From: a virus
Virus record (IMG/VR): IMGVR_UViG_3300003690_000100
Coordinates: 1 to 32,394 of that record
Strand: one strand, 5' to 3'
DNA length: 32,394 nucleotides
A program made the translations under genes and the position numbers. The notes beneath the pieces were generated by a model. It was not told the origin of the DNA. It ran no database searches and worked only from the letters and a program-made list of their open reading frames with translations. Each line of letters begins with the position of its first letter. Positions within the stretch are counted from its first letter, which is position 1. Of the stretch, positions 7,860-29,359 are shown in pieces.

Positions 7860-8861
7860 ATGGCTTTCGCAAACAGTTCCGTCAGCGACATCATTGCGAC
7901 AAACATTCAAAGTCGCACTGGTGAGCTTGCGGATAATGTGACGGACAACAATGCTTTGCTCCGTCGCATTAAAGAGCGTGGTAACATTAAGACGTTTTCG
8001 GGTGGTAACGTGATCTTGGAAGAAATCATGTATAACGACTCGAACACGGACAACACCAATAGTTATAGCGGCTATGAAGTGTTGAATGTTTCTCAAAACT
8101 CCCCCATCAGTGCGGCGCAATTCTCAATCACGCAGTATGCGTCGGCAGTTTCCATCTCCGGCCTGGAAATGATCCAGAACTCCGGTAAGGAAGCTATTAT
8201 CGACTTGCTCGACGGCAGAATGAACGTAGCCGAAGCGCAGCTGATGAATCGACTTGGGGGGGATATTTACCTCGATGGAACAGGCAACTCCGGGAAGAAC
8301 ATCACCGGACTTGGGGCTGCGGTTCCAGACGATCCGACAACCGGCACATACGGCGGCATCAATCGCGCTACGTTCTCCTTCTGGCGCTCCGTTAAATATG
8401 CCGGGGTCGCTGATGGCGGTGGTGCTATAACGTCCAGTAACATTCAGGAATACATGGATGCCCTGGCCGTGCAGCTAATCCGTGGCACCGACAAGCCGGA
8501 CCTTATCGTCTCGGACAATACTTACTACAACTTATATCTAAGTTCGTTGCAGACGATCCAAAGGATTACCGATTCCGGTTCCTCAATGGCCGGAGCGGGT
8601 TTTGCTTCGCTGAAATACTTTGGCGCTGGCATGGCTTCCGATGTAGTTCTCGACGGCGGCATTGGCGAGGCGGCAACTTCCTCGCACATGTGGTTCCTCA
8701 ACACCAAATATCTGCGGTTCCGTCCTCACAGGGATAGGAATTTCGTTCCCATCGGGGGCGAACGCCAGGCGGTGAACCAGGATGCCATCGTGAAGCTCAT
8801 CGGCTGGGCCGGGAACCTGACGTGTTCCGGGTCGCAGTTCCAAGGCGTATTGATCGCATAG
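7860..8861 (+). CDS. major capsid protein
   Basis: A 333-residue coat protein expected to adopt the HK97 fold and form the icosahedral shell. The N-terminal region reads DNVTDNNALLRRIKERGNIK, followed by FSGGNVILEEI, consistent with capsid proteins of BPP-1-like short-tailed phages, and the C-terminus contains the typical LRFRPHRDRNFVPIG and NQDAIVKLIGWAGNL segments (residues about 283-324). No N-terminal protease-processed delta domain is visible; the separate scaffold fits that. It has a strong ribosome binding site (GAAAGGA) and is followed by the decoration gene and then a terminator, consistent with very high expression. Confidence 0.9.
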   Translation: MAFANSSVSDIIATNIQSRTGELADNVTDNNALLRRIKERGNIKTFSGGNVILEEIMYNDSNTDNTNSYSGYEVLNVSQNSPISAAQFSITQYASAVSISGLEMIQNSGKEAIIDLLDGRMNVAEAQLMNRLGGDIYLDGTGNSGKNITGLGAAVPDDPTTGTYGGINRATFSFWRSVKYAGVADGGGAITSSNIQEYMDALAVQLIRGTDKPDLIVSDNTYYNLYLSSLQTIQRITDSGSSMAGAGFASLKYFGAGMASDVVLDGGIGEAATSSHMWFLNTKYLRFRPHRDRNFVPIGGERQAVNQDAIVKLIGWAGNLTCSGSQFQGVLIA

Positions 8862-8885: not shown

Positions 8886-9422
8886 ATGGCATATACATTT
8901 GACGAACCTCGCGTCGGTTTGCTTCAAATCGCGCAGATCGACACGGGCGTTACAATGGCGAATGGTAGTTCCGCCATTACTACGCCGCCGAATGTTCTTG
9001 GCTCAGTTGTCAAGGCGTTCGATCCGACATACGGGGAGGGTGAGTTTGTCCTTCTCAAAGGCGTGGCGAGTACGGCGATAGGAACCCTTGTAACCTGGGA
9101 TGGTACAACCTATACGTCGATCTTAGCCGCAACGACGACTAACCAAGCACGTCCTGTAGCTGTGGCGATGTCGGCCAATACTTCCGCTTCGGAGTTTGGT
9201 TGGTATCAAATCAGCGGGACAGCGGTTGTCTCGAAGTCAACATCTTCAAAATTCAACGCAACCGTAGCTCTTGGCGTCAAGTCCACTGGCAAGGTTGGGG
9301 CAACTGCCACAGGTGTCGAAGTTCTCGGTGCTCGTACCGCGAATACGGCAACGGTGGCCTCGGCCACGACAACCGTAACGGTTGTCATGGACCGGCCTCA
9401 CTTGCAGGGTCGAATAACTTAA
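8886..9422 (+). CDS. putative capsid decoration (cement) protein
   Basis: The 178-residue protein follows the coat gene, is T/A/V-rich and predicted mostly beta, matching small cement proteins that stabilise the shell. It starts MAYTFDEPRVGLLQIAQIDT, has a YGEGEFVLLKGVAST segment (about 50-64) like the jelly-roll/SH3-like decoration proteins of several phages, and ends DRPHLQGRIT. It has a strong AAGGAAAA ribosome binding site. The assignment comes from position and composition; a tail-related beta protein is a less likely alternative. An intrinsic terminator begins seven bases after the stop. Confidence 0.75.
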   Translation: MAYTFDEPRVGLLQIAQIDTGVTMANGSSAITTPPNVLGSVVKAFDPTYGEGEFVLLKGVASTAIGTLVTWDGTTYTSILAATTTNQARPVAVAMSANTSASEFGWYQISGTAVVSKSTSSKFNATVALGVKSTGKVGATATGVEVLGARTANTATVASATTTVTVVMDRPHLQGRIT

Positions 9423-9428
9423 GGAGTT

Positions 9429-9460
9429 GCAGGGGAGGGTAGCCCCCTTCCCTGCTTTTT
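9429..9460 (+). terminator. strong intrinsic terminator after the head genes
   Basis: An 11-bp stem (GCAGGGGAGGG at 9429-9439 against CCCTTCCCTGC at 9445-9455, including one G-U pair in RNA) with a 5-base loop is followed at once by TTTTT (9456-9460). It lies seven bases after the decoration gene and ends three bases before the next start codon, so it should reduce expression of downstream tail genes relative to the capsid block. Confidence 0.9.
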
Positions 9461-9463
9461 CTC

Positions 9464-10786
9464 ATGGAAATTGAAATTTCCTGTAATACGGGAACCGAAA
9501 TCCTCTTTGAGAACGTGCGTGAAAACTCGCGCGCGTGCTCTAAGTGGACCAAGCTCTTACCGGCCCATGACGGCCATGCCATCATTGTTGGGGGTGGTCC
9601 GTCCATGGCCGAGAACTTGCGGCTTATAAAGAGGCGCCACGCCCTGGGACAGCATATCTTTGCTCTTAATGGTGCTGCCCGCTTTCTTAATAAGAATGGA
9701 ATCGTGCCGGAATACCAAGTAATCCTCGATGCTCGCGTGCGGAATGTCGCGCTTATGGCGGGTGCAAAGGAGCACCTTATCGCCTCTCAGTGCCATCCTG
9801 GTATACTTAAAAAGTCGAAAAATATCACGCTATGGCACCCGGCAGTCCCAGGCATTGATTCACACCTTCCAGAGCATGACAGCTCATACGCGCTAGTTGG
9901 AGGGGGAACGACTGTCGGCCTATCAGCGATGTGCCTTGCGTACACGATGGGTTACAGAAAGTTACATCTTTTTGGCTACGATTCGTCACATCGTGACGTT
10001 TCGGCCCACGCCTACGAGCAGTCTCAGAACGCCGACGAACCTATTTGTAAGGTGACGGTGAACGGCAAAGTCTACACATCGACCCTTGCTATGGCATGGC
10101 AGGCCAAGCTGTTCCCCGAATGCTGTAACAAGTTGATATGGTTAGGTTGCATCATAACTGTCGATGGCGATGGGCTCATCATGGAGGCCATCAATAGGGG
10201 TCCGATGCAAGAGATAGAAGAAAAAGATAAGTACATCAAAATGTGGAAGAACCCCAGCTATAGGGCGGTTTCTCCAGGCGAAGACGCTGTTGACGAATTC
10301 ATAGAGACGGCTGAGATCAATAGGCGCACCAGCATTATAGACTTTGGTTGCGGAACGGGTCGCGGAGGCGAACGTATCTGGCAGCTAACGGGCGCCAAGA
10401 TACAGCTTGTGGACTTCGCGGACAACTGCCTGGATCATGGATGTATGCTTCCTTTCACCGTGGCCGATCTCTCTAAGCCCATGGATATATCCGCCGATGT
10501 AGGCTTCTGCGTCGATGTCATGGAGCATATCCCGACAGGACAGATTGAAGACACCATTAGAAACATCATGGGATGCGTGCGCGGCTGCTTCTTTAAGATA
10601 GCCATGTTCCCAGACAATATGGATCAATTAATCGGACATCCGCTTCACATGTCGGTTTTCCCCGTTTCATGGTGGGAGGACAAATTCAGCAACTACAAAG
10701 TTGTATATCGTAACCACGATGACGACGACGATTTTCCATACGCCGTCTTCTTCGTGAGGAACATTCCGCCGCAAGAAAGAAACTGA
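9464..10786 (+). CDS. DUF115 (MptE-like) domain fused to a SAM-dependent methyltransferase
   Basis: The 440-residue protein joins two domains. Residues about 35-245 show the DUF115/6-hydroxymethylpterin diphosphokinase MptE-like pattern: AIIVGGGPSMAENL (39-52), FALNGAARFL (66-75), VILDAR (86-91) and LVGGGTTVGLSAMCLAY (144-160). Residues about 288-435 are a class I methyltransferase with motif I IIDFGCGTGRGG (291-302), an acidic residue at QLVDFAD (314-320) and VDVMEHIP (350-357). The substrates are unknown; such DUF115 proteins in phages may act on sugars or surface glycans. No Shine-Dalgarno is visible: the ATG follows the terminator T-tract by three bases, so translation may depend on readthrough transcripts. 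Confidence 0.88.
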   Translation: MEIEISCNTGTEILFENVRENSRACSKWTKLLPAHDGHAIIVGGGPSMAENLRLIKRRHALGQHIFALNGAARFLNKNGIVPEYQVILDARVRNVALMAGAKEHLIASQCHPGILKKSKNITLWHPAVPGIDSHLPEHDSSYALVGGGTTVGLSAMCLAYTMGYRKLHLFGYDSSHRDVSAHAYEQSQNADEPICKVTVNGKVYTSTLAMAWQAKLFPECCNKLIWLGCIITVDGDGLIMEAINRGPMQEIEEKDKYIKMWKNPSYRAVSPGEDAVDEFIETAEINRRTSIIDFGCGTGRGGERIWQLTGAKIQLVDFADNCLDHGCMLPFTVADLSKPMDISADVGFCVDVMEHIPTGQIEDTIRNIMGCVRGCFFKIAMFPDNMDQLIGHPLHMSVFPVSWWEDKFSNYKVVYRNHDDDDDFPYAVFFVRNIPPQERN

Positions 10787-10798
10787 AAAGGAGTCATT

Positions 10799-11347
10799 AT
10801 GTCATTAGATAGCGATGTAGCCAACGCAGATACCAAGTTGCATACGGAGTTTTACATCAAAGAAATCAATCCGAATAAAGGAATGCCTTATGTCAGGATC
10901 ATAGTCCCTGGCGACAAAACATCCATAATTGAGCAGCCTGTTCGGGAAGATCACAAGGAGCGTTTTCCGCGCCAATGGCTCTATTTCCAGATGAAGCGAG
11001 AGGGTGACGGAAGCCAAACGCCCGGCTTGCCACTCATGGAATGGAATAAGGAAGCCCCGGAAGACTTCAGTGTGGGCCAGATGGAGGAAATGCTTATTCT
11101 TAAGTTCCAGACGGTTGAACAGATTGGCAGCGCTTCAGACGCTCAGTTACAGCGTGTCGGAATGGGCGGCATCGCCTTGCGCGATAAGGCCAGAGCGTTC
11201 CTTAAGAGTAGGAGCGCGGTGGAGACGAATAAGGATGTGGCGGCGACGAAAAAAGAAATTGCGGCGCTTAAGGCACAAGTTGCTCGTCTCACCGCTGGCG
11301 CCCCTATTCGTCGTCGAGGGCGTCCACCTAAAGTAGCGGGATCATAA
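10799..11347 (+). CDS. conserved virion-region protein with HhH-like segment and AT-hook-like tail
   Basis: A 182-residue soluble protein. The N-terminal half contains MPYVRIIVPGDKTSIIEQPV (split at about 28-47) as in conserved phage proteins encoded between coat and connector genes. Residues about 103-135 (FQTVEQIGSASDAQLQRVG, then MGGIALRDKARAFL) look like a helix-hairpin-helix unit; a coiled coil follows, and the tail RRRGRPPK (171-178) is an AT-hook-like DNA minor-groove motif. It has an AAAGGAG ribosome binding site. The function is unknown; DNA contact inside the head or at the portal is a guess from these motifs. Confidence 0.75.
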   Translation: MSLDSDVANADTKLHTEFYIKEINPNKGMPYVRIIVPGDKTSIIEQPVREDHKERFPRQWLYFQMKREGDGSQTPGLPLMEWNKEAPEDFSVGQMEEMLILKFQTVEQIGSASDAQLQRVGMGGIALRDKARAFLKSRSAVETNKDVAATKKEIAALKAQVARLTAGAPIRRRGRPPKVAGS

Positions 11348-11350
11348 TCT

Positions 11351-12256
11351 ATGGCCAGCACACTTCTGCAACTTATGACGCAGGTTACGGGTGAACTTGG
11401 CGTTCCCATTCCCGCAACGGTTATAGGAAACAACAACCAAGACGTTGTTCAACTTCTCGCACTGATGAATGCGTGTGGCTACGAGTTAATGCGTAAGGCA
11501 GACTGGCGACAACTCACTAAGACGCATATTTTCACAACTAGCTTCCTCACAACTACTGGAACGTGGAGCGACGGAGGGACGGTAATAACGTCCATCCCGG
11601 ACACCAGCACGCTTGATACCACGTATATGATCGTAGGGAGCGGGATACCGAATAGTGCGTTCATTACGAGTGTGGATAGCGGCACACAGGTCACGGCGGA
11701 CCTGACGTTCACCGCAGCCGGAACGGCGGACACGCTCAATTTCCAGAAGGTCAAGTATACTCTCCCCACAGACTATGACTTGACGGTGCCGCGTACACAC
11801 TGGGACAAGTCAAAACACTGGGAAATGCTAGGCCCTACAGATGCGCAACAATGGGAATGGCTCCTGAGTGGGTTTATCGCTACTGGACCGCGCATACGTT
11901 GGCGTCTACTTGGAGAGTTTTTCCAGATATGGCCCGGCTATTCCAGCGCCGAAGTGCTCGGCTTTGAGTATTGCAGCAATTCCTGGGCCTCCACCACGGC
12001 AGGGGTGGGAAAGACCGGCTTTACGGTAGATTCCGATACGTGCATCTACCCGGATCGCCTCATTGTCCTAATGACGAAGCTAAAATACTTTGAGGCTAAG
12101 GGCTTCGATACTACGGCGATGTACCGTAATTATATTGAAGAACTCGAAACCGACATCGGGCAAAATACTTCCTCCGCGAACCTTTCCTTTGCGCCGAGGC
12201 CGTCAAGCATCTTAATCGGTTATGACAACATTCCTGATAGCGGGTATGGAAGTTAG
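11351..12256 (+). CDS. putative head-to-tail connector/adaptor protein
   Basis: A 301-residue protein beginning MASTLLQLMTQVTGELGVPIP, followed by NNNQDVVQLLALMNACGYELMRKADW; this helical N-terminus and a beta-rich middle (residues 60-130) are typical of the adaptor proteins of short-tailed phages that dock below the portal. The DWRQLTKTH segment (56-64) and the C-terminal helix with NYIEELETDIGQ support the same family as I remember it. It starts three bases after the preceding stop. The specific equivalence to P22 gp4 or T7 gp11 is not established from sequence alone. Confidence 0.7.
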   Translation: MASTLLQLMTQVTGELGVPIPATVIGNNNQDVVQLLALMNACGYELMRKADWRQLTKTHIFTTSFLTTTGTWSDGGTVITSIPDTSTLDTTYMIVGSGIPNSAFITSVDSGTQVTADLTFTAAGTADTLNFQKVKYTLPTDYDLTVPRTHWDKSKHWEMLGPTDAQQWEWLLSGFIATGPRIRWRLLGEFFQIWPGYSSAEVLGFEYCSNSWASTTAGVGKTGFTVDSDTCIYPDRLIVLMTKLKYFEAKGFDTTAMYRNYIEELETDIGQNTSSANLSFAPRPSSILIGYDNIPDSGYGS

Positions 12257-12258
12257 AA

Positions 12259-13836
12259 ATGGCTTATCGTGGGCATAAGATAGTCCAAGGGTCCATCGCC
12301 AAGGTTGAGTCGTTGCCCGCGCCCGTGGGGGGCTGGAATGCCCGTGACAGTCTGGCAAACATGTCCCCATTGGATGCCGTTACGCTTATTAACATGTTTC
12401 CAAATGTCTCTAACTGCGTACTCCGGGGTGGGTACACCCGACACGCCACGGGGATGGACGGGGAAGTACAGTCGCTTCTACGGTATTCGCCGCCATCGGG
12501 TACAGAAAAACTATTCGCGGTTGTAGGAACGCCTGACCTTTCGATCTTCAATGTTTCTTCCTCTGGGGCGGTTGGGGCTGCGGAAGTGTCCAGCCTTACG
12601 AATGCCTATTGGGAGTATGCCAACGTATCAACAACGGCAGGGAATTACCTATATGCCGTTAATGGTACGGATGAGCCACTTCTCTACGACAACTCGTCAT
12701 GGACTTCGATTACTGCGGTTTCGACGCCAGCCATTACCGGCGTCACTACAACAGCATTATCGAACGTAGCTTTATTCAAAAACCGTCTATGGTTCATAGA
12801 GAAGAATACGCTGAAAGCTTGGTATTTACCGACATCTTCCATTGGCGGTGCGGCCAGCGTCCTTGATTTAAGCTCTATCGTTAGCAAGGGCGGCTATCTC
12901 GTAGATATGGGCACATGGACAGTCGATGCCGGATATGGCGTCGATGACAACTTTGTCTTCGTCACAAGCCAGGGCGAGATCGTTGTCTATGCCGGGACAG
13001 ACCCGGCGAGCGCGGATACGTGGTCCCTTATAGGTATATGGCAGCTTGGTGCGCCTATCGGCAACAGATGTCTTATGAAGTGGGCTGGCGACTTGCTGGT
13101 ACTCAACTATGACGGTCTTTTCCCCCTAGTAGCTGCGCTTCAAAGCTCTCGCGTGGACCCTCAAGTTGCGCTCTCGGATAAGATTCAGGGCGCCATCAGT
13201 AAGGCGACTGGTCTGTATAGCACGGGGGCGACCTCGACGGACTGGCAGATGCTTTTCTATCCTAAGCAAAACGCCTTATGGATCAATGTTCCTGTTAGCG
13301 CTGGCAAACAAGAACAATACATAATGAATACCATCACGAAGTCATGGTGCCAATTCCAAGGGTGGCCCGCGAATTGTTGGGACTTATTTAATAACGAGCC
13401 GTACTTTGGCGGGGACGGCTTTGTAGGCGTGGCGTGGGACACTACCTATGCAGACAATTCCACCAACATCGACACCTTTAGCCTCCAGGCATTTAATTAC
13501 TTTGATTCCCGTGGCGTGGAAAAATACTTCACACGCTCTCGTCTCAGCCTATTCACTGACGGAGTGCCTAGCGTCTTTATCGGTATGAATGTGGACTTCA
13601 ACATCTCGAATAGCACGGCGCCGCTTTCATTCTCGACCTCCGAATACGGATTCTGGGACGTTGGGAAGTGGGATACCGCCATCTGGGGGCAGGATACCGT
13701 CATTACTAATAATTGGCAGGGCATTACCGGCATTGGCTACTGCGGCGCTCTACAAGTGAAGACGGCCTCGCAAGGACTCCAAATCGAATGGGCATCCACT
13801 GATGTTGTGTATCAGCAAGGGTGGGCCGGAGTATGA
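12259..13836 (+). CDS. putative tail hub/nozzle protein (beta-propeller-like)
   Basis: The 525-residue, beta-rich protein contains LPAPVGGWNARDSLANMSP (residues 19-37) and LINMFPNVSNCVLRGGYTRH (45-64), a pattern I associate with the tail-tube or hub proteins of podoviruses (P22 gp10 and relatives). The middle has repeated aromatic strands such as LFKNRLWFIE and WTVDAGYGVDDNFVFVTSQG, consistent with propeller blades. It is encoded right after the adaptor, as expected for a protein that extends the short tail. It overlaps the acetyltransferase gene by ATGA at 13833-13836. Confidence 0.75.
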   Translation: MAYRGHKIVQGSIAKVESLPAPVGGWNARDSLANMSPLDAVTLINMFPNVSNCVLRGGYTRHATGMDGEVQSLLRYSPPSGTEKLFAVVGTPDLSIFNVSSSGAVGAAEVSSLTNAYWEYANVSTTAGNYLYAVNGTDEPLLYDNSSWTSITAVSTPAITGVTTTALSNVALFKNRLWFIEKNTLKAWYLPTSSIGGAASVLDLSSIVSKGGYLVDMGTWTVDAGYGVDDNFVFVTSQGEIVVYAGTDPASADTWSLIGIWQLGAPIGNRCLMKWAGDLLVLNYDGLFPLVAALQSSRVDPQVALSDKIQGAISKATGLYSTGATSTDWQMLFYPKQNALWINVPVSAGKQEQYIMNTITKSWCQFQGWPANCWDLFNNEPYFGGDGFVGVAWDTTYADNSTNIDTFSLQAFNYFDSRGVEKYFTRSRLSLFTDGVPSVFIGMNVDFNISNSTAPLSFSTSEYGFWDVGKWDTAIWGQDTVITNNWQGITGIGYCGALQVKTASQGLQIEWASTDVVYQQGWAGV

Positions 13837-14297
13837 ACGGCTATACCATGAGCGTCGAATGCGTGGCGGACATCTTCGATGAAATCGAGCCATTGGCCCG
13901 TGCGCACTATGCCGAAATGTCGGATCGCTTGGAACGTGACGGCTTTCAGACATCGCCCTACAATCCACGCCTAAATGAGTATTTTAAGGCATCGCGCGAT
14001 GGTTGGCTGCTCACATTTCTCCTTCGGTACGATGGGAAGGCGGTTGGTTATGCCAATGTCTATGTAACCAACGATATGCATAACGGTGACTTAATTGCCC
14101 AGGAGGATACGCTCTTTGTGCTGAAGGAACACCGCAATGGCATAGGCCGAAAGTTTGTTCGCTTTTGCCTGGATAAGTTGAAAGATCGCGGCGCAAGGCG
14201 CCTATCCGTGTCGGCGCTTACCGATCTTCGCGTAGCAAAACTCTGGAAACGTATGGGCTTCAAAGAAGTCGCCGTCCAGATGATGTATACTTTTTAG
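13833..14297 (+). CDS. GNAT-family N-acetyltransferase
   Basis: A 154-residue protein with the GNAT acetyl-CoA binding motif A: TLFVLKEHRNGIGRKFVRFC, where RNGIGR (residues 101-106) is the R-x-x-G-x-G pyrophosphate loop, followed by the helix and a SVSALTDLRVAKLWKRMGF motif B (125-143). It would transfer an acetyl group from acetyl-CoA to an amine of unknown identity. The ATG at 13833 is chosen because it overlaps the preceding stop (ATGA); an upstream in-frame GTG at 13821 would give a longer overlap. GNAT proteins occur among tail genes of several podoviruses; a virion or host target cannot be told apart here. Confidence 0.88.
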   Translation: MNGYTMSVECVADIFDEIEPLARAHYAEMSDRLERDGFQTSPYNPRLNEYFKASRDGWLLTFLLRYDGKAVGYANVYVTNDMHNGDLIAQEDTLFVLKEHRNGIGRKFVRFCLDKLKDRGARRLSVSALTDLRVAKLWKRMGFKEVAVQMMYTF

Positions 14298-21025: not shown

Positions 21026-21613
21026 ATGAGTTTTAACGGATCAGGCACTTTCCAGATCAATACAGCAGGGCAGCCTGTTGTCACGGGAACGGTTATAAGT
21101 TCCTCTGATTTCAATTTGCTCACCGCTGATATTGGGACGGGTCTTTCCACGGCCATTTGTAAGGACGGCCAGACGACGGTAACGGCAAATATCCCCATGG
21201 GCACAAATAAGATCACGGGTCTTGCCGTTGCTACATCTTCAGGCGATGCACTGAGTTTTGCCCAAGCCGCCGAAGTGACGACGCTCACCGTATCCGGCGC
21301 TCTTACCTATGGTGGTGTAACGCTCACCGCAGCGGTAACTGGGACGGGCAAGATGGTGCTAGACACAAGCGCCTCGTTAGTCACGCCGCTGCTTGGAACG
21401 CCCACTAGTGGAACGCTTACGAACTGCACGGGCCTCCCGATAAGCACGGGCGTTAGCGGCCTTGGGTCCAATGTCGCCACATTCCTGGCCACGCCATCCA
21501 GCTCAAATCTGGCACTTCGCCACAAGTCCGACGCTAGTTACTCCAGTGCTCGGAACCCCCTCCAGTGGGACACTTACAAGCTGCACGGGTCTCCCAATCA
21601 GCACGGGCGTTAG
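21026..21613 (+). CDS. tail fibre, N-terminal part (frame broken at 21514)
   Basis: The frame starts MSFNGSGTFQINTAGQPVVT, a typical N-terminus of phage tail fibres, followed by DGQTTVTANIPMGTNKITGL and then the collagen-like repeated LGTPTSGTLTNCTGLPISTG pattern. The fibre reading is good to SSSNLA at about residue 163 (21514). There a 38-bp loss relative to the intact repeat shifts the frame, and the last 30 residues (LRHKSDASYSS...) are out-of-frame reading. The N-terminus would anchor the fibre to the short tail. An AAAAGGA ribosome binding site precedes the ATG. The continuation is found in two other frames downstream. Confidence 0.85.
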   Translation: MSFNGSGTFQINTAGQPVVTGTVISSSDFNLLTADIGTGLSTAICKDGQTTVTANIPMGTNKITGLAVATSSGDALSFAQAAEVTTLTVSGALTYGGVTLTAAVTGTGKMVLDTSASLVTPLLGTPTSGTLTNCTGLPISTGVSGLGSNVATFLATPSSSNLALRHKSDASYSSARNPLQWDTYKLHGSPNQHGR

Positions 21614-21974
21614 CGGCCTTGGGTCCAATGTTGCGACCTTTCTAGCTACCCCATCCAGCTCAAATCTGGCAGCAGCGGTTTCAGACGAAACTGGGTCTGG
21701 AAACTTATGCTTCGCCACAAGTCCGACGCTAGTTACTCCAGTCTTGGGGACACCCTCCAGTGGAACGCTTACGAGCTGCACGGGCCTCCCGATAAGCACG
21801 GGCGTTAGCGGCCTTGGGTCCAATGTCGCCACATTCCTGGCCACGCCATCCAGCTCAAATCTGGCACAGTGGGACACTTACAAGCTGCACGGGGCTCCCT
21901 ATAAGCACTGGAGTAACCGGGTTAGGGTCCAATGTCGCCACATTCCTGGCCACACCGTCATCGGCTAATCTTCG
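21449..21974 (+). repeat. 195-bp tail fibre repeat array with two truncated units
   Basis: Four units start at 21449, 21606, 21801 and 21910, each opening with GGCGTTAGCGGCCTTGGGTC or a variant. The spacing is 157, 195 and 109 bp. The 195-bp interval is an intact 65-codon unit; the others lack exactly 38 and 86 bp. Both losses begin after the same bases, CAGCTCAAATCTGGCA (ending at 21514 and 21866), and neither is a multiple of three. Confidence 0.9.
21515..21968 (+). pseudogene. tail fibre, middle fragment in a second frame
   Basis: From about 21515 the fibre repeat continues in the frame of 21462-21968: FATSPTLVTPVLGTPSSG, TLTSCTGLPISTGVSGLGS, NVATFLATPSSSNLAAAVSD and again through to SSSNLA at 21866. 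There an 86-bp loss relative to the 195-bp unit shifts the frame once more and the reading ends at 21968. No independent start or ribosome binding site is seen, so this is a stranded middle piece of one gene unless the sequence has errors. Confidence 0.7.
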
Positions 21975-23016
21975 ATCCGCTCTAACAGATGAGACAGGTT
22001 CGGGTGCTTGCGTATTCGCCGGTTCCCCCACACTAACTGGCACTGTCTCCGCAGCCGCGCTTTCAACTTCGGGAAGCGCCCAGATCGGTGATGCTGTGAC
22101 AGATACACTAGCGGTTGGCGCTGCCCCGCCCACGACAGCCTCGTACTCACAGTCGTTCTTCGGCGGTAATGCAATTGCCCTCTCGGATAGTGGCTCGTGG
22201 ACTTCCTTCGGAGCTAATTGGTACTACAATTCAGGGGCGTTCCGATATAGGCATGACGGTGCAGCTTCACGCTGCAGTTGGGGATCCGATGCCACAGGCA
22301 ATTTTGAAATAGACGTTTCCGTTTCGGGTTCTGAAGACGGAGCAATTTCATGGCTTCGGTGTTTGACAATAGACGTGGACCGCGTTGTACATTTCAACGG
22401 GATAGGTACTACGGCAAGCGGCGCGAACGCATTTCTCGACTCTGGGGATACGGAATCCCTGCTTCGCAGCACGTCATCGCTTCGGTACAAAAAGGATGTG
22501 GAAGCAATCGAGAAGCCATACATCGACAACATCATGCTTCTCAATCCAATTTGGTATCGCTCGCTATCACCAGCCGACAATCCACTATTTTCCTGGTTTG
22601 GGCTGGCCGCAGAAGATGTATTCAAGATCGAGCCGAGGCTAGTCCATTACACCAGGGACGTTACTGGTACAGAGGATTACGAGGAAGACGCTATCCGAGA
22701 GGTTACGATTGACCAAGAATTCGAGTCCATTGTTGAACGTGAAGGCAAGCTGATTCTCACGAAACAGATACGTCAAGTTTCTGTTATGGAGGATAAACCC
22801 ATCTGGAATGAGGATGGCTCCCCTCTCATGGTCAGTGAATCCGTCCAGGCTGTTAAAAAGGTAGCCCGTACAGAGACTTACAAAAAGAGTAAGCAGCGTC
22901 CAGTCTATAGTGAGCTAAAGCCGGACGGGATTATGTATGATCGCCTCGCGGTTTTGCTGCTTGGAAAAGTCAAGGAACAAGAGGCTCGCATTAGAGCCCT
23001 TGAGAGTGGTTCGTAA
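21814..23016 (+). CDS. tail fibre, C-terminal part with S74 intramolecular chaperone
   Basis: In the third frame the true fibre reading begins after 21866 (SGTLTSCTGLPISTGVTG), followed by a receptor-region-like beta segment and, from about 22450, a peptidase S74 (endosialidase-type) chaperone domain: STSSLRYKKDVEAIEKPYID near 22465-22525 with the serine/lysine self-cleavage residues, NPIWYRS, WFGLAAEDV and YDRLAVLLLGKVKEQEARI. These domains trimerise the fibre and cut themselves off. The annotated start at 21814 is only the first available codon. The chaperone end is intact, so the break lies only in the repeat shaft. Confidence 0.85.
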   Translation: MGPMSPHSWPRHPAQIWHSGTLTSCTGLPISTGVTGLGSNVATFLATPSSANLRSALTDETGSGACVFAGSPTLTGTVSAAALSTSGSAQIGDAVTDTLAVGAAPPTTASYSQSFFGGNAIALSDSGSWTSFGANWYYNSGAFRYRHDGAASRCSWGSDATGNFEIDVSVSGSEDGAISWLRCLTIDVDRVVHFNGIGTTASGANAFLDSGDTESLLRSTSSLRYKKDVEAIEKPYIDNIMLLNPIWYRSLSPADNPLFSWFGLAAEDVFKIEPRLVHYTRDVTGTEDYEEDAIREVTIDQEFESIVEREGKLILTKQIRQVSVMEDKPIWNEDGSPLMVSESVQAVKKVARTETYKKSKQRPVYSELKPDGIMYDRLAVLLLGKVKEQEARIRALESGS

Positions 23017-24775: not shown

Positions 24776-25135
24776 CGGAATATCCCAGGAGCGCAGCGCG
24801 TCTAGCGCTTCGTCCAGAGTTCGGACGGTTTCAACCAGCACGCCAGCACCTAGTAGACGTGCGTGCATCGCACGCTGCGCCTTCGATACGCGACCTACTT
24901 TCGTTTTTAATTCCATCGCTCGCGTGCATGAGCGGTAGAAAAACAATAGATCAGGTACACCAGGCTCTAACCCGGAAGCCTTCAATATCTTGCCGCGAAT
25001 AACTCCGCCACCCCCTGCCGGAAAGGCAACCATTACACAGTCGCCCGGCAGTATCTTACGCAGATCACGGACTAGAGCGCTTTGGAAGTGCTGTTCTAGG
25101 TGGGAGCGTTTTTTCTTAAATATACGAGTAGTCAT
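24764..25135 (-). CDS. VRR-NUC domain nuclease
   Basis: A 123-residue PD-(D/E)xK-type nuclease of the VRR-NUC family. It shows GVPDLLFF (D62), AMELKTKVGRVSKAQ (E75, K77, Q87) in the order and spacing of this family, preceded by a glycine-rich AGGGGVIRGK segment. VRR-NUC domains are structure-specific or Holliday-junction-type nucleases in phages and in Fan1. It is the last gene of the leftward operon; its ATG overlaps the methyltransferase stop (ATGA), and its end overlaps the opposing lysis gene by 12 bp. A role in recombination intermediates alongside the exonuclease and ERF protein is inferred. Confidence 0.88.
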   Translation of the reverse strand: MTTRIFKKKRSHLEQHFQSALVRDLRKILPGDCVMVAFPAGGGGVIRGKILKASGLEPGVPDLLFFYRSCTRAMELKTKVGRVSKAQRAMHARLLGAGVLVETVRTLDEALDALRSWDIPLRV

Positions 25136-25737
25136 GCTGCGACCTCGCCAAACTTCTCTGTATCATTTCCCCAAGATGTCCAACCTTGGCGCGTATTGCG
25201 CGCAAATAATTCCAGGTATGGTCCAGCGACGAGCCTCTCTATGCGGCCATAAATGCAATCTGGCTTGCGGGAGTGCTGGCGGCGGGGTTCTATGATTCCT
25301 TGGCGGACGGCGGCGCTTCGGCGCTTGGGTTTGCCGCGCGCGGCGAGCAGACAGACCTCGCTGTTAGATCGCGTCCAGTAGCCGCTGCCGATAAGAGCTT
25401 TCGTATCTTCCTGAAAAAACTCTAACTGCTTTGCGTTGGCTTTCATCCATGAAAACGCGCACGTTTTGTAAGTAAATCCCCAGGCGGCAATAACAGATAA
25501 TGCGCGTTGAAGCGTGGGCCATGTGACCCACATAATCAGTACACAGTCCTTGTTGGCGAGAGATTCAACCGGCAGCGCGGTGAGCGCGTCGGTGTCCATT
25601 GTGCGGTAGTGTCGTCTAACATCTGTATTCGCTTTTTCTTGTGTGCCCCAGGTATCGAAAGCCCAAGGCGGATCAGCATAGATCGCACCGAAATGGTGAT
25701 GCGGTATGTCACCAAACGGCCAACTCAGGCACCTCAT
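25132..25737 (-). CDS. MT-A70-type DNA N6-adenine methyltransferase
   Basis: The 201-residue enzyme carries AIYADPPWAF with the catalytic DPPW (residues 22-25), GYWTRSNSEVCLLAARG (119-135), HSRKPD (155-160) and GPYLELFARNTRQGWTSWGN (172-191), all hallmarks of phage MT-A70 adenine methyltransferases. It should methylate adenine in phage or host DNA at an unknown site. The ATG at 25737 is chosen because it overlaps the upstream stop (TAATG); a longer in-frame extension to 25923 lies inside the upstream gene. Methylation may protect DNA or mark promoters. A 46-bp piece of this gene recurs inverted at 27565-27610. Confidence 0.92.
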   Translation of the reverse strand: MRCLSWPFGDIPHHHFGAIYADPPWAFDTWGTQEKANTDVRRHYRTMDTDALTALPVESLANKDCVLIMWVTWPTLQRALSVIAAWGFTYKTCAFSWMKANAKQLEFFQEDTKALIGSGYWTRSNSEVCLLAARGKPKRRSAAVRQGIIEPRRQHSRKPDCIYGRIERLVAGPYLELFARNTRQGWTSWGNDTEKFGEVAA

Positions 25738-26051
25738 TACCTTATCCAATATATTGGTGTCCGACGCGCATGGCTTTTCTTCGCAGTCATGTGTCCATAG
25801 CGGCCAGTATCTATCAGGATGCCGCGACGAACAGCGGTGGAGATTAGGGAGCCCCATGCGTTGTGATGGTGGGGAACGATTCCGCGATGGCTGAGTGCCA
25901 TACGCACTTGCTCGCCAGTCCATTCTCCGGCAGGAAGCTGGTCTATGCTGGCCAGTGCGCCTACCATAAAGTCGGGCGCGTTTGACGCGACCTTATCTAG
26001 CGCCGCGTTCCTTTCCGAGCGAGCAGTATAAAGATCGCTCATCCGAGACAC
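25737..26051 (-). CDS. conserved phage protein, winged-helix-like, 104 aa
   Basis: A 104-residue protein with DQLPAGEWTGEQVRMALSHR (38-57), GIVPHHHNAWGSLISTAVRR (58-77) and a C-terminal KSHARRTPIYWIR. I recognise the PxGEWTGExVRxALxxRGIxPHHHNAWG pattern as a conserved small phage protein found near replication and regulatory genes; it reads like a winged-helix DNA-binding fold, but no function is proven. The GTG at 26051 has AGAGG about ten bases upstream; an ATG at 26042 is the alternative. It is coupled by TAATG to the methyltransferase. Confidence 0.75.
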   Translation of the reverse strand: MSRMSDLYTARSERNAALDKVASNAPDFMVGALASIDQLPAGEWTGEQVRMALSHRGIVPHHHNAWGSLISTAVRRGILIDTGRYGHMTAKKSHARRTPIYWIR

Positions 26052-27200: not shown

Positions 27201-27651
27201 AGTTTCAAAACTTCATGAAGTTCCAGACGGGTCTAAGCTCCCACGCAGCACAATAGATTTGGTAGTTGACGCCATAGATAACGCTGAAAAATGCAGAATT
27301 GCGTGGTTTAACCAACTCGAAATCCGAAGGGAATTCGGGCTCGGGCAAGCCAGAGTCACGAGGTTGGAGGATGCCACCAAATTACTCCAAAGTTTGAGAC
27401 GTTCGATATACGATGATTGTTGCGGCAATAAATACGGACTCTACCTGATAGATTTGGTAGTTGACGCCATAGATAACGCTGAAAAAGAGGATGCCACCAA
27501 AATCGTCTTACTCCAAAGTTTGAGACGTCAGATAGCCGAATTGCGTGGTTTAATAGCAGAATTGCAAGGACTGTGTACTGATTATCTGGGTAACGTGGCC
27601 CACGCTTCAAGTGGTTTAACCAACTCGAAATCCGAAGGGGAAGCGCAATGA
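27193..27651 (+). CDS. mosaic repeat protein between exonuclease and ERF genes
   Basis: A 152-residue protein not matching a family I know. IDLVVDAIDNAEK appears twice (residues about 21-33 and 86-98), LLQSLRR twice, and IAELRGLIAELQG forms a two-heptad coiled coil near residue 115. DNA repeats explain this: an exact 39-bp block recurs 195 bp apart, and other blocks recur in shuffled order and in different frames. A 46-bp segment matches the methyltransferase gene in inverted orientation. The start has a GAGGAGAA ribosome binding site. The reading frame is intact, so it may be expressed, but it could also be a decayed or newly assembled gene. Confidence 0.6.
   Translation: MSKVSKLHEVPDGSKLPRSTIDLVVDAIDNAEKCRIAWFNQLEIRREFGLGQARVTRLEDATKLLQSLRRSIYDDCCGNKYGLYLIDLVVDAIDNAEKEDATKIVLLQSLRRQIAELRGLIAELQGLCTDYLGNVAHASSGLTNSKSEGEAQ
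27253..27639 (+). repeat. shuffled direct repeats within the mosaic gene
   Basis: Block A (39 bp, starting ATAGATTTGGTAGTTGACGC) is identical at 27253-27291 and 27448-27486. Block B (GAGGATGCCACCAAA...TTTGAGACGT) is at 27367-27403 and 27487-27529 with a 6-bp indel. Block C (29 bp, GTGGTTTAACCAACTCGAAA...) is at 27303-27331 and 27611-27639 in different frames. Block D (GAATTGCGTGGTTTA) is at 27296-27310 and 27538-27552. D and C overlap at GTGGTTTA in the first copy but are 58 bp apart in the second. Confidence 0.9.
27565..27610. repeat. 46-bp inverted copy of a methyltransferase gene segment
   Basis: The 46 bases starting CAAGGACTGTGTACTGATTA equal the reverse complement of 25507-25552 at 43 of 46 positions. 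In the methyltransferase this segment encodes the KDCVLIMWVTWPTLQ region; here it is read in another frame. The two copies are about 2.0 kb apart and inverted, flanking the early promoter region. Confidence 0.9.
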
Positions 27652-28412: not shown

Positions 28413-28839
28413 GTTTTTTGTCCAGCGCGGGCGTGATGGTTTAATGCCATTCTCTGCTGAAGACTCAGCCCAAATCGCCAAACTGGCGTATGGAAAGCCG
28501 ATCAAGATTAAGGCTACGGTGCCCCGAAATGGCCGGTTCCTTGCGTTGTATTGGGTTCTTTGCGCGCGCGTGGCGGATGCACTTGGGATTTCGCCAGAGG
28601 TGGTGAGTGACTTGATTAAGGTCGCAACGGGACATTGCACTGTCGTCAAAACAAAAACAAAGGGAGTGCAGTATTTCCCAAGATCAATTAGCTTTGCGAA
28701 AATGAAGGATGAAGATAGCTTCCGCGATTTTTTTGACCGGGCGATCTGTGTAATTTGTAACGAGTGGGGCATGGAGCGTACCGATGTCCTTGCCGCAGTT
28801 GAGGATATATTGGTGCCCACGGAACTGCGTGGTAGGTGA
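28405..28839 (+). CDS. DUF1367-like protein, NinB-type neighbourhood
   Basis: A 144-residue protein with GLMPFSAEDSAQIAKLAYGK (split at residues 12-31), PRNGRFLALYWVLC and RSISFAKMKDEDSFRDFFDR (96-115), then a WGMERTDVLAAVEDIL helix. The RNxxF...ALY and SISFAKMxxxxFxxFxDRxxxVI patterns resemble DUF1367 proteins, a family found in the recombination and replication regions of lambdoid and related phages with no established activity. The ATG at 28405 overlaps the ERF stop by eight bases; an upstream ATG at 28378 is possible. The stop is followed at once by gcrA. Confidence 0.72.
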   Translation: MSEFFVQRGRDGLMPFSAEDSAQIAKLAYGKPIKIKATVPRNGRFLALYWVLCARVADALGISPEVVSDLIKVATGHCTVVKTKTKGVQYFPRSISFAKMKDEDSFRDFFDRAICVICNEWGMERTDVLAAVEDILVPTELRGR

Positions 28840-28840
28840 T

Positions 28841-29359
28841 GTGAAGTGCAACGCAAATCCTGTTTGGACACCTAGGAGGATGGAACTCCTACGGAAATTG
28901 TGGCGGCAGGGCTGGACCGCGCGGGCTATCGCTAGCCAGCTTGGAGTGGTTTCACGCAACGCAGTGCTTGGAAAGGCGCATCGTTTGGGCCTTCAGTTGA
29001 GGACCCATGCTGACCATGGGCGATGGGCTGGGGAGTCTGCGCGTCCAGCGGCACAATCTCCTGCGCCTAAACCACCTCCTGCGCCTAAACCACCTCCTGC
29101 GCCTAAACCACCTCCTGCGCCCGAACCACTTCCTGCGCCCGAACCACTTCCTGCGCCCGAAACGTCCCCTTTAACGCTCGTTCGGACGGTGGACCTTGCA
29201 GAGCATCACTGTAAATGGCCGACTGGCCACGTTCAAGAACTGGGCTTTGGGCACTGCGGGGCGCCACGTCTCGCGGGGAAACCTTATTGCGAGGAGCATG
29301 ACAGAAAAGCGCATAATCGTGGAGTCAAGCCCATGGTGATTCAAGATTTTGTCAGGTAA
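28841..29359 (+). CDS. gcrA: GcrA-family transcription regulator with proline-rich linker, GTG start
   Basis: A 172-residue GcrA homologue. The N-terminal DNA-binding domain reads VWTPRRMELLRKLWRQGWTA (8-27), then IASQLG and SRNAVLGKAHRLGL (38-51). The C-terminal RNA polymerase-sigma70-binding part shows CKWPTG, HCGAPRLAGKPYCEEH (about 121-157). In Caulobacter GcrA recruits sigma70 at promoters with methylated GANTC sites. Here the linker is expanded by a PAPKPP/PAPEPL repeat. GTG 28841 is chosen because it directly follows the upstream stop with AGGTGA before it and because the conserved domain starts eight residues in; the frame extends to 28784 inside the previous gene. Presence of gcrA points to an alphaproteobacterial host. 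Confidence 0.9.
   Translation: MKCNANPVWTPRRMELLRKLWRQGWTARAIASQLGVVSRNAVLGKAHRLGLQLRTHADHGRWAGESARPAAQSPAPKPPPAPKPPPAPKPPPAPEPLPAPEPLPAPETSPLTLVRTVDLAEHHCKWPTGHVQELGFGHCGAPRLAGKPYCEEHDRKAHNRGVKPMVIQDFVR
29060..29161 (+). repeat. 18-bp tandem repeat encoding the gcrA proline linker
   Basis: Units of 18 bp: CCTGCGCCTAAACCACCT three times, CCTGCGCCCGAACCACTT twice, then a partial CCTGCGCCCGAA. They encode PAPKPP three times and PAPEPL twice, so length can vary without loss of frame. Confidence 0.9.

What the first reader, a model, noticed from the sequence alone, without database searches (positions are those of the whole stretch)
9464..10786. MptE-like domain fused to a class I methyltransferase in the virion gene block
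Both domains retain nucleotide- and SAM-binding motifs (VGGGPSM, DFGCGTG). The fusion suggests a two-step modification of one substrate, for example making and methylating a glycan or nucleotide-sugar, encoded among head and tail genes instead of among early genes. A virion or receptor-glycan modification is a possible but unproven role.
Basis: partly seen in the sequence, partly recalled or inferred. Interest (0 to 1): 0.5.

Follow-up and report, generated by a model that had tools for sequence, protein, structure and literature searches.

The report
Phage capsid-linked glycosyltransferase–methyltransferase fusion
A virus that infects bacteria carries, directly after its capsid genes, one protein that joins a sugar-transferase-like domain to a methyl-transferring domain; other, unrelated phages carry the same pair fused or side by side among their head genes, so it probably attaches and caps a sugar on the virus shell.

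Summary
Window 9464-10786 is one 440-aa frame: an N-terminal PF01973 domain and a C-terminal class I SAM methyltransferase, just downstream of the major capsid gene and a small virion protein gene. It is not an accidental fusion: 46 non-redundant D115-MT sequences (window included) share it, 45 with the same upstream neighbour. The domains are also fused in the opposite order in another large family, and occur as adjacent separate genes behind unrelated capsid proteins. Both domains and the linker are under purifying selection. One relative has a stop at the domain border.

"MptE-like" is only the Pfam label. By sequence and predicted fold the domain is closer to Maf flagellin glycosyltransferase than to MptE, and resembles the sialyltransferase CstII. 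Other neighbours of this methyltransferase in phages include sulfotransferases, glycosyltransferases and "alpha-2,3-sialyltransferase" (PHROG 4603) genes. E. coli phage P1 PmgO, PmgP and PmgQ belong to the same families.

Best explanation: a Maf/CstII-type glycosyltransferase adds a sugar, probably to a capsid surface protein, and the fused methyltransferase caps it. Fold class is well supported; activity, acceptor, donor and methylation site are inferred. My paper searches showed no description of the module. New variant of a known kind; interest 0.56.

The parts
9464..10786 (+). Fusion gene, 440 aa: Maf/DUF115-type domain + SAM methyltransferase
   Evidence: Open frame; Pfam/PHROG; AlphaFold2 model pLDDT 92.7, pTM 0.77
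9464..10213 (+). Domain 1 (residues 1-250), PF01973, Maf / CstII-like fold
   Evidence: PF01973 E 2.8e-19; domain model vs Maf 5mu5 Z 21.3 over 222 aa, MptE/HPPK 8sd5 Z 15.5 over 184, CstII 1ro8 Z 10.7 over 163
9587..9607 (+). VGGGPSM loop, residues 42-48 (S47 invariant)
9728..9730 (+). Asp89, invariant in 42 fused proteins and 19 domain-1 sequences; an Asp is invariant at what looks like the same place in 11 PmgO-type proteins
   Evidence: equivalence read by eye from the motif order
10007..10009 (+). His182, invariant in 42 fused proteins and 19 domain-1 sequences; a His is invariant at what looks like the same place in 11 PmgO-type proteins
   Evidence: equivalence read by eye from the motif order
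10214..10783 (+). Domain 2 (residues 251-440), class I SAM-dependent methyltransferase
   Evidence: PHROG 24759 E 9.8e-12; fold Z 16-19 to many class I methyltransferases
10340..10360 (+). DFGCGTG, SAM-binding loop (residues 293-299)
   Evidence: function of the motif recalled
10502..10528 (+). GFCVDVMEH motif (residues 347-355), strongly conserved in this methyltransferase family
9429..9455 (+). Strong hairpin followed by TTTTTC between the small virion gene and the fusion start codon
   Evidence: 11 pairs (terminator-like sites in the region are not above shuffles); -25.2 kcal/mol, z -3.8; hairpins of different sequence at the same place in relatives
7860..8861 (+). Major capsid protein (context)
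   Evidence: PHROG 9953 E 4.7e-104
8886..9422 (+). Small Ser/Thr-rich virion protein ('DEC'), candidate acceptor (context)
   Evidence: PHROG 29386 virion structural protein E 5.9e-19; Ser+Thr content
10799..11347 (+). Conserved downstream neighbour, PHROG 20268 (context)
11351..12256 (+). Tail protein (context)
   Evidence: PHROG 6013 E 1.9e-39

Best explanation
The protein is a two-step glycan-modifying enzyme of the virion assembly programme. Its N-terminal domain is a glycosyltransferase of the Maf / CstII (sialyltransferase-like) superfamily that transfers a sugar from a nucleotide-sugar, plausibly a CMP-activated keto-acid sugar of the host such as CMP-Kdo, to Ser/Thr of a capsid surface protein; the small Ser/Thr-rich protein coded just upstream is the likeliest acceptor, the major capsid protein the second. 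The fused methyltransferase then caps that sugar with a methyl group. Shown: the fusion, conservation of both motif sets, fold class of both domains, the constant position beside capsid genes in the window's lineage, repeated pairing of the two domains in both orders and as neighbours, and their neighbourhood with other glycan-modifying enzymes. Inferred: catalytic activity, donor, acceptor, and that the methyl group goes on the sugar.
For: Domain 1: best solved relative is Maf flagellin glycosyltransferase by profile (E 5.3e-16 vs MptE 3.5e-5) and by fold (Z 21.3 vs 15.5; CstII 10.7). [quoted passage not shown] Domain-1 profile vs a profile of 11 PmgO-type phage proteins: probability 97.6%, E 4e-12; three of these 11 were scanned and match PHROG 4603 'alpha-2,3-sialyltransferase' (P1 PmgO E 4e-74, L392 1e-30, L368 1e-19), and their profile reaches CstII at E 1e-3. 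Pairing: of 102 methyltransferase clusters (80% identity) 66 are fused to and 24 lie next to a domain-1-superfamily gene (90 of 102), 11 have a sulfotransferase neighbour and 3 a glycosyltransferase neighbour of the PmgQ type; in the set found with a methyltransferase-only query 31 of 41 have the partner. Fused in both orders (47 and 15 clusters with domain 1, plus 4 with a PmgO-type N-terminal domain). In the window's lineage, sister phages carry other domain-1 fusions after DEC: with PmgQ-type and GT2-like domains, or with an FkbM methyltransferase. Capsid link: 45 of 46 D115-MT representatives have the DEC gene just upstream (in the exception the contig begins inside the gene). A capsid gene is upstream in 51 of 102 clusters by four capsid profiles, and a fifth capsid family (phrog_1005) in 3 of 10 further loci tested. 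Tetraselmis virus S20 has annotated sialyltransferase, glycosyltransferase and methyltransferase genes between its maturation-protease and head-closure genes. DEC is richer in Ser+Thr in loci with domain 1 (median 20.8%, 31 sequences) than without (15.2%, 10; p 1.5e-5), more than the capsid protein (16.0 vs 14.1%; p 0.017).
Against: No activity, glycan or virion mass spectrum of a member turned up. The donor is unknown: no sugar-nucleotide gene was found among the 30 window proteins scanned against Pfam, and the window is a virus record that may be a fragment. The phrog_9953 loci are one lineage, so shared position there is partly common descent, and the Ser/Thr difference is confounded by phylogeny. 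In 5 MT-D115 representatives, one upstream protein of each was tested and none was a capsid protein (two connector/portal, one portal, one fibre-like/unknown, one unknown). 12 of 102 methyltransferase clusters have no domain-1 partner, 10 of them no recognised partner at all (two of the 10 end within 50 bases downstream and four are bacterial genome contigs). The separate partners of the L003 and L008 type have no family match above a cut-off and are tied to domain 1 only by an iterated profile. One relative has a stop at the domain border. Catalytic residues of CstII/Maf were not mapped onto the model.
Confidence: 0.5

Rival explanations
1. The enzyme modifies a host surface glycan (LPS, O-antigen, capsule) rather than the virion, blocking superinfection or re-adsorption to debris; expression with late genes is incidental.
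For: Domain 1 and PmgO-like proteins resemble CstII, a sialyltransferase of Campylobacter, and one LOS sialyltransferase; phage seroconversion enzymes are a known kind (recalled).
Against: The gene sits inside the head gene block behind several unrelated capsid families, where a late-expressed gene would have little time to remodel the surface (inference); DEC Ser/Thr enrichment.
Confidence: 0.2
2. Two separate modifications of one virion protein: domain 1 glycosylates Ser/Thr, domain 2 methylates Lys, the N-terminus or another residue of the protein, not the sugar.
For: A flagellin that is glycosylated with pseudaminic acid also carries methyl-lysine (PMC9290775, abstract and section 3.2). 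The methyltransferase fold alone does not tell the substrate.
Against: Its other neighbours include sulfotransferases and sugar transferases, which fits capping of a glycan.
Confidence: 0.16
3. Domain 1 is an MptE-type pyrophosphokinase of a small molecule (pterin or nucleotide) and the methyltransferase acts on that product.
For: The Pfam name; MptE/HPPK fold match Z 15.5 over 184 aa.
Against: Maf is closer by sequence and fold; recognised neighbours are glycan enzymes; no pterin gene was seen among the 30 window proteins scanned.
Confidence: 0.06
4. The enzyme hypermodifies phage DNA or another nucleic acid.
For: Phages often code DNA glycosyltransferases and methyltransferases (recalled; a paper on virus-encoded DNA glycosyltransferases was seen only as a citation).
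Against: Linkage to capsid genes, not to replication genes; the window has its own MT-A70 methyltransferase in another block.
Confidence: 0.05
5. The fusion is a structural or scaffolding protein that only keeps enzyme folds.
For: Position in the structural block.
Against: Catalytic-type motifs are invariant across 42 proteins, the other 41 being 37-61% identical to the window's; phages with a related capsid protein lack it (0 of 88 loci, 77 of them with both slot borders seen).
Confidence: 0.03

Closest known systems
Maf flagellin glycosyltransferases (Magnetospirillum Maf, PDB 5mu5; PF01973)
   Same: Domain 1 aligns over nearly its whole length to Maf's central domain (Z 21.3, 222 aa); same Pfam family (passage).
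   Different: No Maf N- or C-terminal domains; fused to a methyltransferase; linked to capsid genes.
CstII-type bacterial sialyltransferases and phage PHROG 4603 'alpha-2,3-sialyltransferase' (includes P1 PmgO)
   Same: Shared fold (Z 10.7) and homology to PmgO-type proteins (E 4e-12).
   Different: A distinct subfamily; window protein itself not matched by PHROG 4603 at E 0.01 (it matches PHROG 2111, the PmgP family, at E 0.0039).
MptE (archaeal 6-hydroxymethyl-7,8-dihydropterin pyrophosphokinase, PDB 8sd5)
   Same: Fold (Z 15.5) and weak profile match (E 3.5e-5).
   Different: More distant than Maf; no linked pterin genes seen.
Virion glycosylation of mycobacteriophages (Che8, Rita)
   Same: Phage-coded glycosyltransferases and a capsid glycan, as reported in PMC11256854 (passages).
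   Different: In Maravista those genes are near the 3' end of the genome; no link to this family was tested, and the primary paper (Freeman 2023) was not held.
Phage P1 pmgO / pmgP / pmgQ
   Same: PmgO and PmgP match the domain-1 superfamily profile (E 5e-25, 3e-20; narrower domain-1 profile 4e-7, 9e-9), PmgQ the glycosyltransferase profile (E 5e-42). L347 has two PmgO/P-type genes, this methyltransferase and a PmgQ-like gene in one row.
   Different: In the P1 stretch examined (76-87 kb) no methyltransferase of this family was found; separate genes.
Phage proteins already in UniProt/BFVD as '6-hydroxymethylpterin diphosphokinase MptE-like'
   Same: Uncultured Caudovirales proteins of 540-700 aa match the model (A0A6J7XC21 E 1.8e-28 over 415 columns).
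   Different: Carry only the automatic label; their architecture was not examined here.

Membership tests
Pfam PF01973 (MptE-like / Maf_flag10) | Score above the curated cut-off | tested here: met
   70 bits vs 34.6, E 2.8e-19
Maf flagellin glycosyltransferase | Central-domain fold | tested here: met
   Z 21.3, 3.5 A, 222 aligned
Maf flagellin glycosyltransferase | Three-domain architecture with N-terminal Rossmann-like and C-terminal helical domains | tested here: not met
   Only the central part (Maf residues 234-498) is aligned and the rest of the protein is a methyltransferase; architecture of Maf from PMC11339370 passage
Maf flagellin glycosyltransferase | Transfers nonulosonic acid to flagellin | not testable with these tools
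   Needs biochemistry
MptE pyrophosphokinase | MptE is the closest characterised relative among solved structures | tested here: not met
   Maf E 5.3e-16, Z 21.3; MptE E 3.5e-5, Z 15.5
MptE pyrophosphokinase | ATP-dependent pyrophosphate transfer | not testable with these tools
   Needs biochemistry
GT42 / CstII sialyltransferases | Fold | tested here: met
   Z 10.7, 3.7 A, 163 aligned; by sequence only E 0.87. The family number GT42 is recalled
GT42 / CstII sialyltransferases | Catalytic residues of CstII in place | not tested
   No coordinates on hand to superpose residues
Class I SAM methyltransferases | DxGxGxG SAM loop and Rossmann-like fold | tested here: met
   DFGCGTG 293-299 invariant at D293, G295, G297, G299; Z 16-19
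PHROG 24759 'methyltransferase' | Profile match | tested here: met
   E 9.8e-12, residues 255-411
Pfam Methyltransf_25 | Score above the curated cut-off | tested here: not met
   22.7 vs 27 bits
Phage virion glycosylation systems | Glycan covalently bound to a virion protein and dependent on the enzyme | not testable with these tools
   Needs virion mass spectrometry of wild type and deletion

The most novel reading that the evidence does not exclude
Tailed phages of Gram-negative bacteria carry a widespread, modular virion-glycosylation toolkit built on Maf/CstII-type glycosyltransferases, with interchangeable capping enzymes (a dedicated methyltransferase family, sulfotransferases) and further glycosyltransferases of the PmgQ type. 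It is fused or reassorted in several orders next to capsid genes of at least five families, it uses host CMP-sugars (e.g. CMP-Kdo) so needs no sugar-synthesis genes, and it includes the unexplained pmgO-pmgP-pmgQ genes of phage P1.
Probability: 0.38. Interest if true: 0.78.

Novelty: new variant of a known kind. Interest (0 to 1): 0.56.

Why it matters
As far as I know (recalled; few papers in my searches), glycosylation of phage particles is documented in few phages. If this reading is right, capsid glycosylation with methyl or sulfate capping is common in environmental phages and can be found from gene order. It would give a function to a recurrent set of unknown head-block genes, and to three nonessential 'putative morphogenetic' genes of P1, a laboratory model where it can be tested by deletion and virion mass spectrometry. 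It would also correct a misleading automatic label (pterin pyrophosphokinase) on phage proteins.

Tried and rejected
Accidental fusion: rejected on dN/dS of domains and linker, 46 non-redundant fusions of which 45 have the same upstream neighbour and fusions in the reverse order. Counter-example kept: L077 has one in-frame stop at the domain border.

MptE-type chemistry: considered and put below Maf.

Looking for the fusion in cultured phages: tblastn of the full protein, of the reverse fusion and of a lone methyltransferase each found 1 of 50,697 records, the same environmental genome MW202621. The capsid protein found 13 records; I fetched 8 of the 13. None of the 8 carries domain 1 or the methyltransferase near the capsid gene by profile; BUCT555 has holin and endolysin genes there.

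Control by capsid: 88 loci (80 found with a capsid alignment led by Mx8, and those 8 records) gave 0 hits to the domain-1, PmgO-type, methyltransferase, sulfotransferase and PmgQ-type profiles among 6427 open frames. In 77 of 88 both borders of the slot (capsid gene and phrog_20268-type gene) were found; 7 of the other 11 end within 1 kb of the capsid gene. Some slots hold other inserts, such as long fibre-like proteins and one that looks Ig-like to me (read by eye, not searched).

Weak or failed: pairwise profile comparison of domain 1 with the L008 partner gave only 4.9% probability and Pfam 18.2 bits, below cut-off; the L003 partner matched no Pfam or PHROG family. Both were linked only through an iterated profile, which can drift. 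phmmer of P1 PmgO against PDB found nothing meaningful. RNA-family and tRNA searches in the window found none. Start codons of several A5 members are BLAST match starts, not checked starts, so their 5' regions (8 of 41 pass a terminator-like test) are partly inside coding sequence. 'GT8-like' in my notes and scripts is my own label by eye; PHROG 1962 calls these proteins glycosyltransferase and Pfam gave no match for two of them.

Several loci are overlapping pieces of one contig (e.g. L002 and L260), which clustering at 80 or 90% identity merges. Methyltransferase clusters were built from L002-L171 and L260-L412; fused counts are inflated because some queries were fused.

Literature: ten full-text searches listed no paper whose title or abstract start describes a DUF115/MptE-like-methyltransferase fusion or this cassette; most subscription papers are not held.

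Full report
WHAT IS THERE. The window is a 32,394-base virus record. At 9464-10786 (+) there is one 440-residue frame. Residues 15-176 match PF01973 at E 2.8e-19, above the curated cut-off. Residues 255-411 match PHROG 24759 'methyltransferase' at E 9.8e-12; Pfam methyltransferase models match only below their cut-offs. The recognised gene order is terminase, portal, a gene without a family match, major head protein (phrog_9953), a 178-aa virion structural protein (here DEC), the fusion, a 182-aa protein (phrog_20268), a tail protein, and a protein that PHROG calls an amidase. Cultured phages with a related capsid protein and the same backbone include Myxococcus Mx8 and Mx9 and Stenotrophomonas BUCT555 (49-53% identity in the capsid protein).

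NOT AN ACCIDENT. A first census of the loci found by fusion, domain-1 and methyltransferase queries gave 143 D115-MT frames and 3 MT-D115 frames, or 46 and 3 clusters at 90% identity (the window itself is counted, and loci overlap). In 45 of 46 D115-MT representatives the DEC profile matches directly upstream; in the 46th the contig begins inside the gene. The capsid profile matches upstream in 38 of 46, and the 8 misses all have under 700 bases upstream. The phrog_20268-type gene is found in 44 of 46. Later scans seeded with the reverse fusion and with a methyltransferase alignment led by an unfused member added 79 MT-D115 frames, 22 D115-MT frames and 51 frames with the methyltransferase alone. 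Nucleotide comparison of ten close relatives gives median dN/dS 0.11 for domain 1, 0.06 for the linker and 0.06 for the methyltransferase. Against this stands L077, with one in-frame stop exactly where domain 1 ends; a fused sequence 98% identical over the methyltransferase exists, so it looks like a recent change or a sequence error.

DOMAIN 1 IS MAF-LIKE. A 19-member domain-1 profile finds Maf glycosyltransferase (5mu5) at E 5.3e-16 and MptE (8sd5) at 3.5e-5 among solved structures. The AlphaFold2 domain model (pLDDT 89, pTM 0.88) matches Maf at Z 21.3 over 222 residues, MptE at Z 15.5 over 184, CstII sialyltransferase at Z 10.7 over 163 and mammalian sialyltransferases at 7-9.6. [quoted passage not shown] The Pfam name is therefore misleading here. 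Separate phage proteins of PmgO type are homologous to domain 1 (hhalign probability 97.6%, E 4e-12); the three of them scanned match PHROG 4603 'alpha-2,3-sialyltransferase'; and they keep S, N, D, G-x-D and H residues in the same order as S47, N69, D89, G171/D173 and H182 (correspondence read by eye). The fused protein's methyltransferase fold matches are generic (Z 16-19), so the substrate cannot be read from the fold.

A MODULE, NOT A SINGLE GENE. Clustering the methyltransferases of loci L002-L171 and L260-L412 at 80% identity gave 102 clusters from 311 frames. With neighbours taken within 700 bases, 66 are fused to the domain-1 superfamily (47 D115-MT, 15 MT-D115, 4 with a PmgO-type N-terminal domain), 24 lie beside such a gene, 1 has only a sulfotransferase, 1 only a PmgQ-type glycosyltransferase, and 10 none. 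Sulfotransferase neighbours occur in 11 of 102 and PmgQ-type neighbours in 3 of 102. Four of the sulfotransferase-like proteins were checked against Pfam: three exceed the cut-off of Sulfotransfer_3 and the fourth that of Sulfotransfer_4. Because some queries were fused, the fairest set is that found with a methyltransferase-only alignment led by an unfused member: 31 of 41 clusters there have a domain-1-superfamily partner, 1 a PmgQ-type gene only, 9 none (with a stricter distance; three of those nine gained a sulfotransferase or domain-1-superfamily neighbour under the wider distance). Within the window's own lineage the region after DEC holds other domain-1 fusions: GT2-like + PmgQ-type + domain 1 (L137, L158), PmgQ-type + domain 1 followed by a second domain-1 gene (L149), and PmgQ-type + domain 1 + FkbM methyltransferase (L156); the GT2-like matches are weak. 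In L016, a 4-kb contig, domain 1 stands alone behind the capsid gene. As a control, 88 loci led by the Mx8 capsid, 77 of them with both slot borders found, gave no hit to any of these profiles among 6427 frames, which also speaks for the specificity of the iterated profiles.

LINK TO THE CAPSID. By four capsid profiles a capsid gene lies upstream in 51 of 102 clusters (39 phrog_9953, 6 phrog_247, 5 phrog_3437, 1 phrog_371); 16 of the rest have under 2.5 kb upstream and 35 remained, four of these bacterial genome contigs. Of ten upstream proteins then tested, each from a different one of those 35 loci, 3 are capsid proteins of a fifth family (phrog_1005), 2 match connector/portal and 2 portal families, 1 an unknown and a tail-fibre family, 2 unknown families. 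So the capsid neighbourhood is common but not shown to be universal. Among named phages, Tetraselmis virus S20 has two sialyltransferase, two glycosyltransferase and one methyltransferase annotations (the last in this family, E 8e-11) between maturation-protease and head-closure genes, and P. aeruginosa phage D14Q has in order capsid gene, PmgO-like gene, connector, adaptor, GT9 and a methyltransferase (weak family match, E 0.0017). DEC is richer in Ser+Thr when domain 1 is in the locus (median 20.8%, 31 sequences, vs 15.2%, 10; p 1.5e-5) while the capsid protein differs less (16.0 vs 14.1%; p 0.017). Relatedness was not corrected for and the DEC profile was built from module-bearing loci, so this is a pointer to the acceptor, not proof.

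EXPRESSION. Between DEC and the fusion there is an 11-pair hairpin followed by TTTTTC and then the ATG (9429-9463; -25.2 kcal/mol, z -3.8), though terminator-like sites in the region are not above shuffles (4 found, mean 3.2). Relatives have hairpins of other sequence at the same spot; in a 13-sequence alignment 5 of 7 predicted pairs show changes on both sides, but the alignment is gappy and six of the seven pairs are broken in 2-4 sequences. A partial terminator that keeps the enzyme below the level of the structural proteins, or a hairpin that brings AAGGAG close to the start codon, would both fit an enzyme better than a structural protein; this is inference.

MECHANISM PROPOSED. Domain 1 takes a nucleotide-activated sugar from the host; CMP-Kdo, which Gram-negative bacteria make (recalled), would serve without any phage sugar-synthesis gene, and none was found among the 30 window proteins scanned. 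It transfers it to Ser/Thr of DEC or the capsid protein before or during head assembly; the fused methyltransferase then methylates the sugar. Sister modules would cap with sulfate or extend with further sugars. Purpose is unknown: shielding from adsorption to debris, host or environmental binding, or capsid stability are all possible. P1 PmgO, PmgP and PmgQ belong to the same families and are listed nonessential by CRISPRi and by a cited deletion survey (PMC10695390, passages), as expected for a decoration system.

VERDICT. Proteins with this domain are already in databases under the automatic label. It is a new variant of a known kind: phage-coded glycan modification, here most likely of the particle.

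Noticed in passing
window 9429-9455: Strong hairpin plus TTTTTC between DEC and the fusion start codon, with AAGGAG 5' of the hairpin; structurally similar hairpins in relatives.
   Followed up: partly
window 28784-29359: GcrA cell-cycle regulator (PF07750, E 2.2e-31) with an 18-base tandem repeat inside the gene; hints at an alphaproteobacterial host.
   Followed up: no
window 25132-25923: MT-A70 type DNA methyltransferase on the minus strand.
   Followed up: no
window 13821-14297: GNAT acetyltransferase gene inside the virion block; acetyl- or acyltransferase genes are annotated in the same region of Mx8, Mx9, BUCT555, ppBjS10J-1, ctMlz233 and RHph_I3_18.
   Followed up: no
window 21330-22004: Degenerate long tandem repeats spaced 109-195 bases in the tail fibre region.
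   Followed up: no
window 25507-25552 and 27565-27610: 46-base inverted repeat arms, 93% complementary, 2 kb apart.
   Followed up: no
L413 3593-6151 (phage P1 pmgO, pmgP, pmgQ): Two tandem sialyltransferase-like genes and a glycosyltransferase gene of unknown role in the laboratory phage P1 belong to the same families as this module.
   Followed up: partly
L356, L362, L367, L368, L376, L378, L379, L388, L402, L406: Recurrent three-gene row PmgO-type gene, methyltransferase, sulfotransferase-like gene in phage contigs.
   Followed up: partly
L206, L228 and other loci, region between capsid gene and phrog_20268-type gene: In Mx8-like phages without the module the same slot holds variable inserts, some looking like Ig-like or lectin-like surface proteins by eye.
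   Followed up: no
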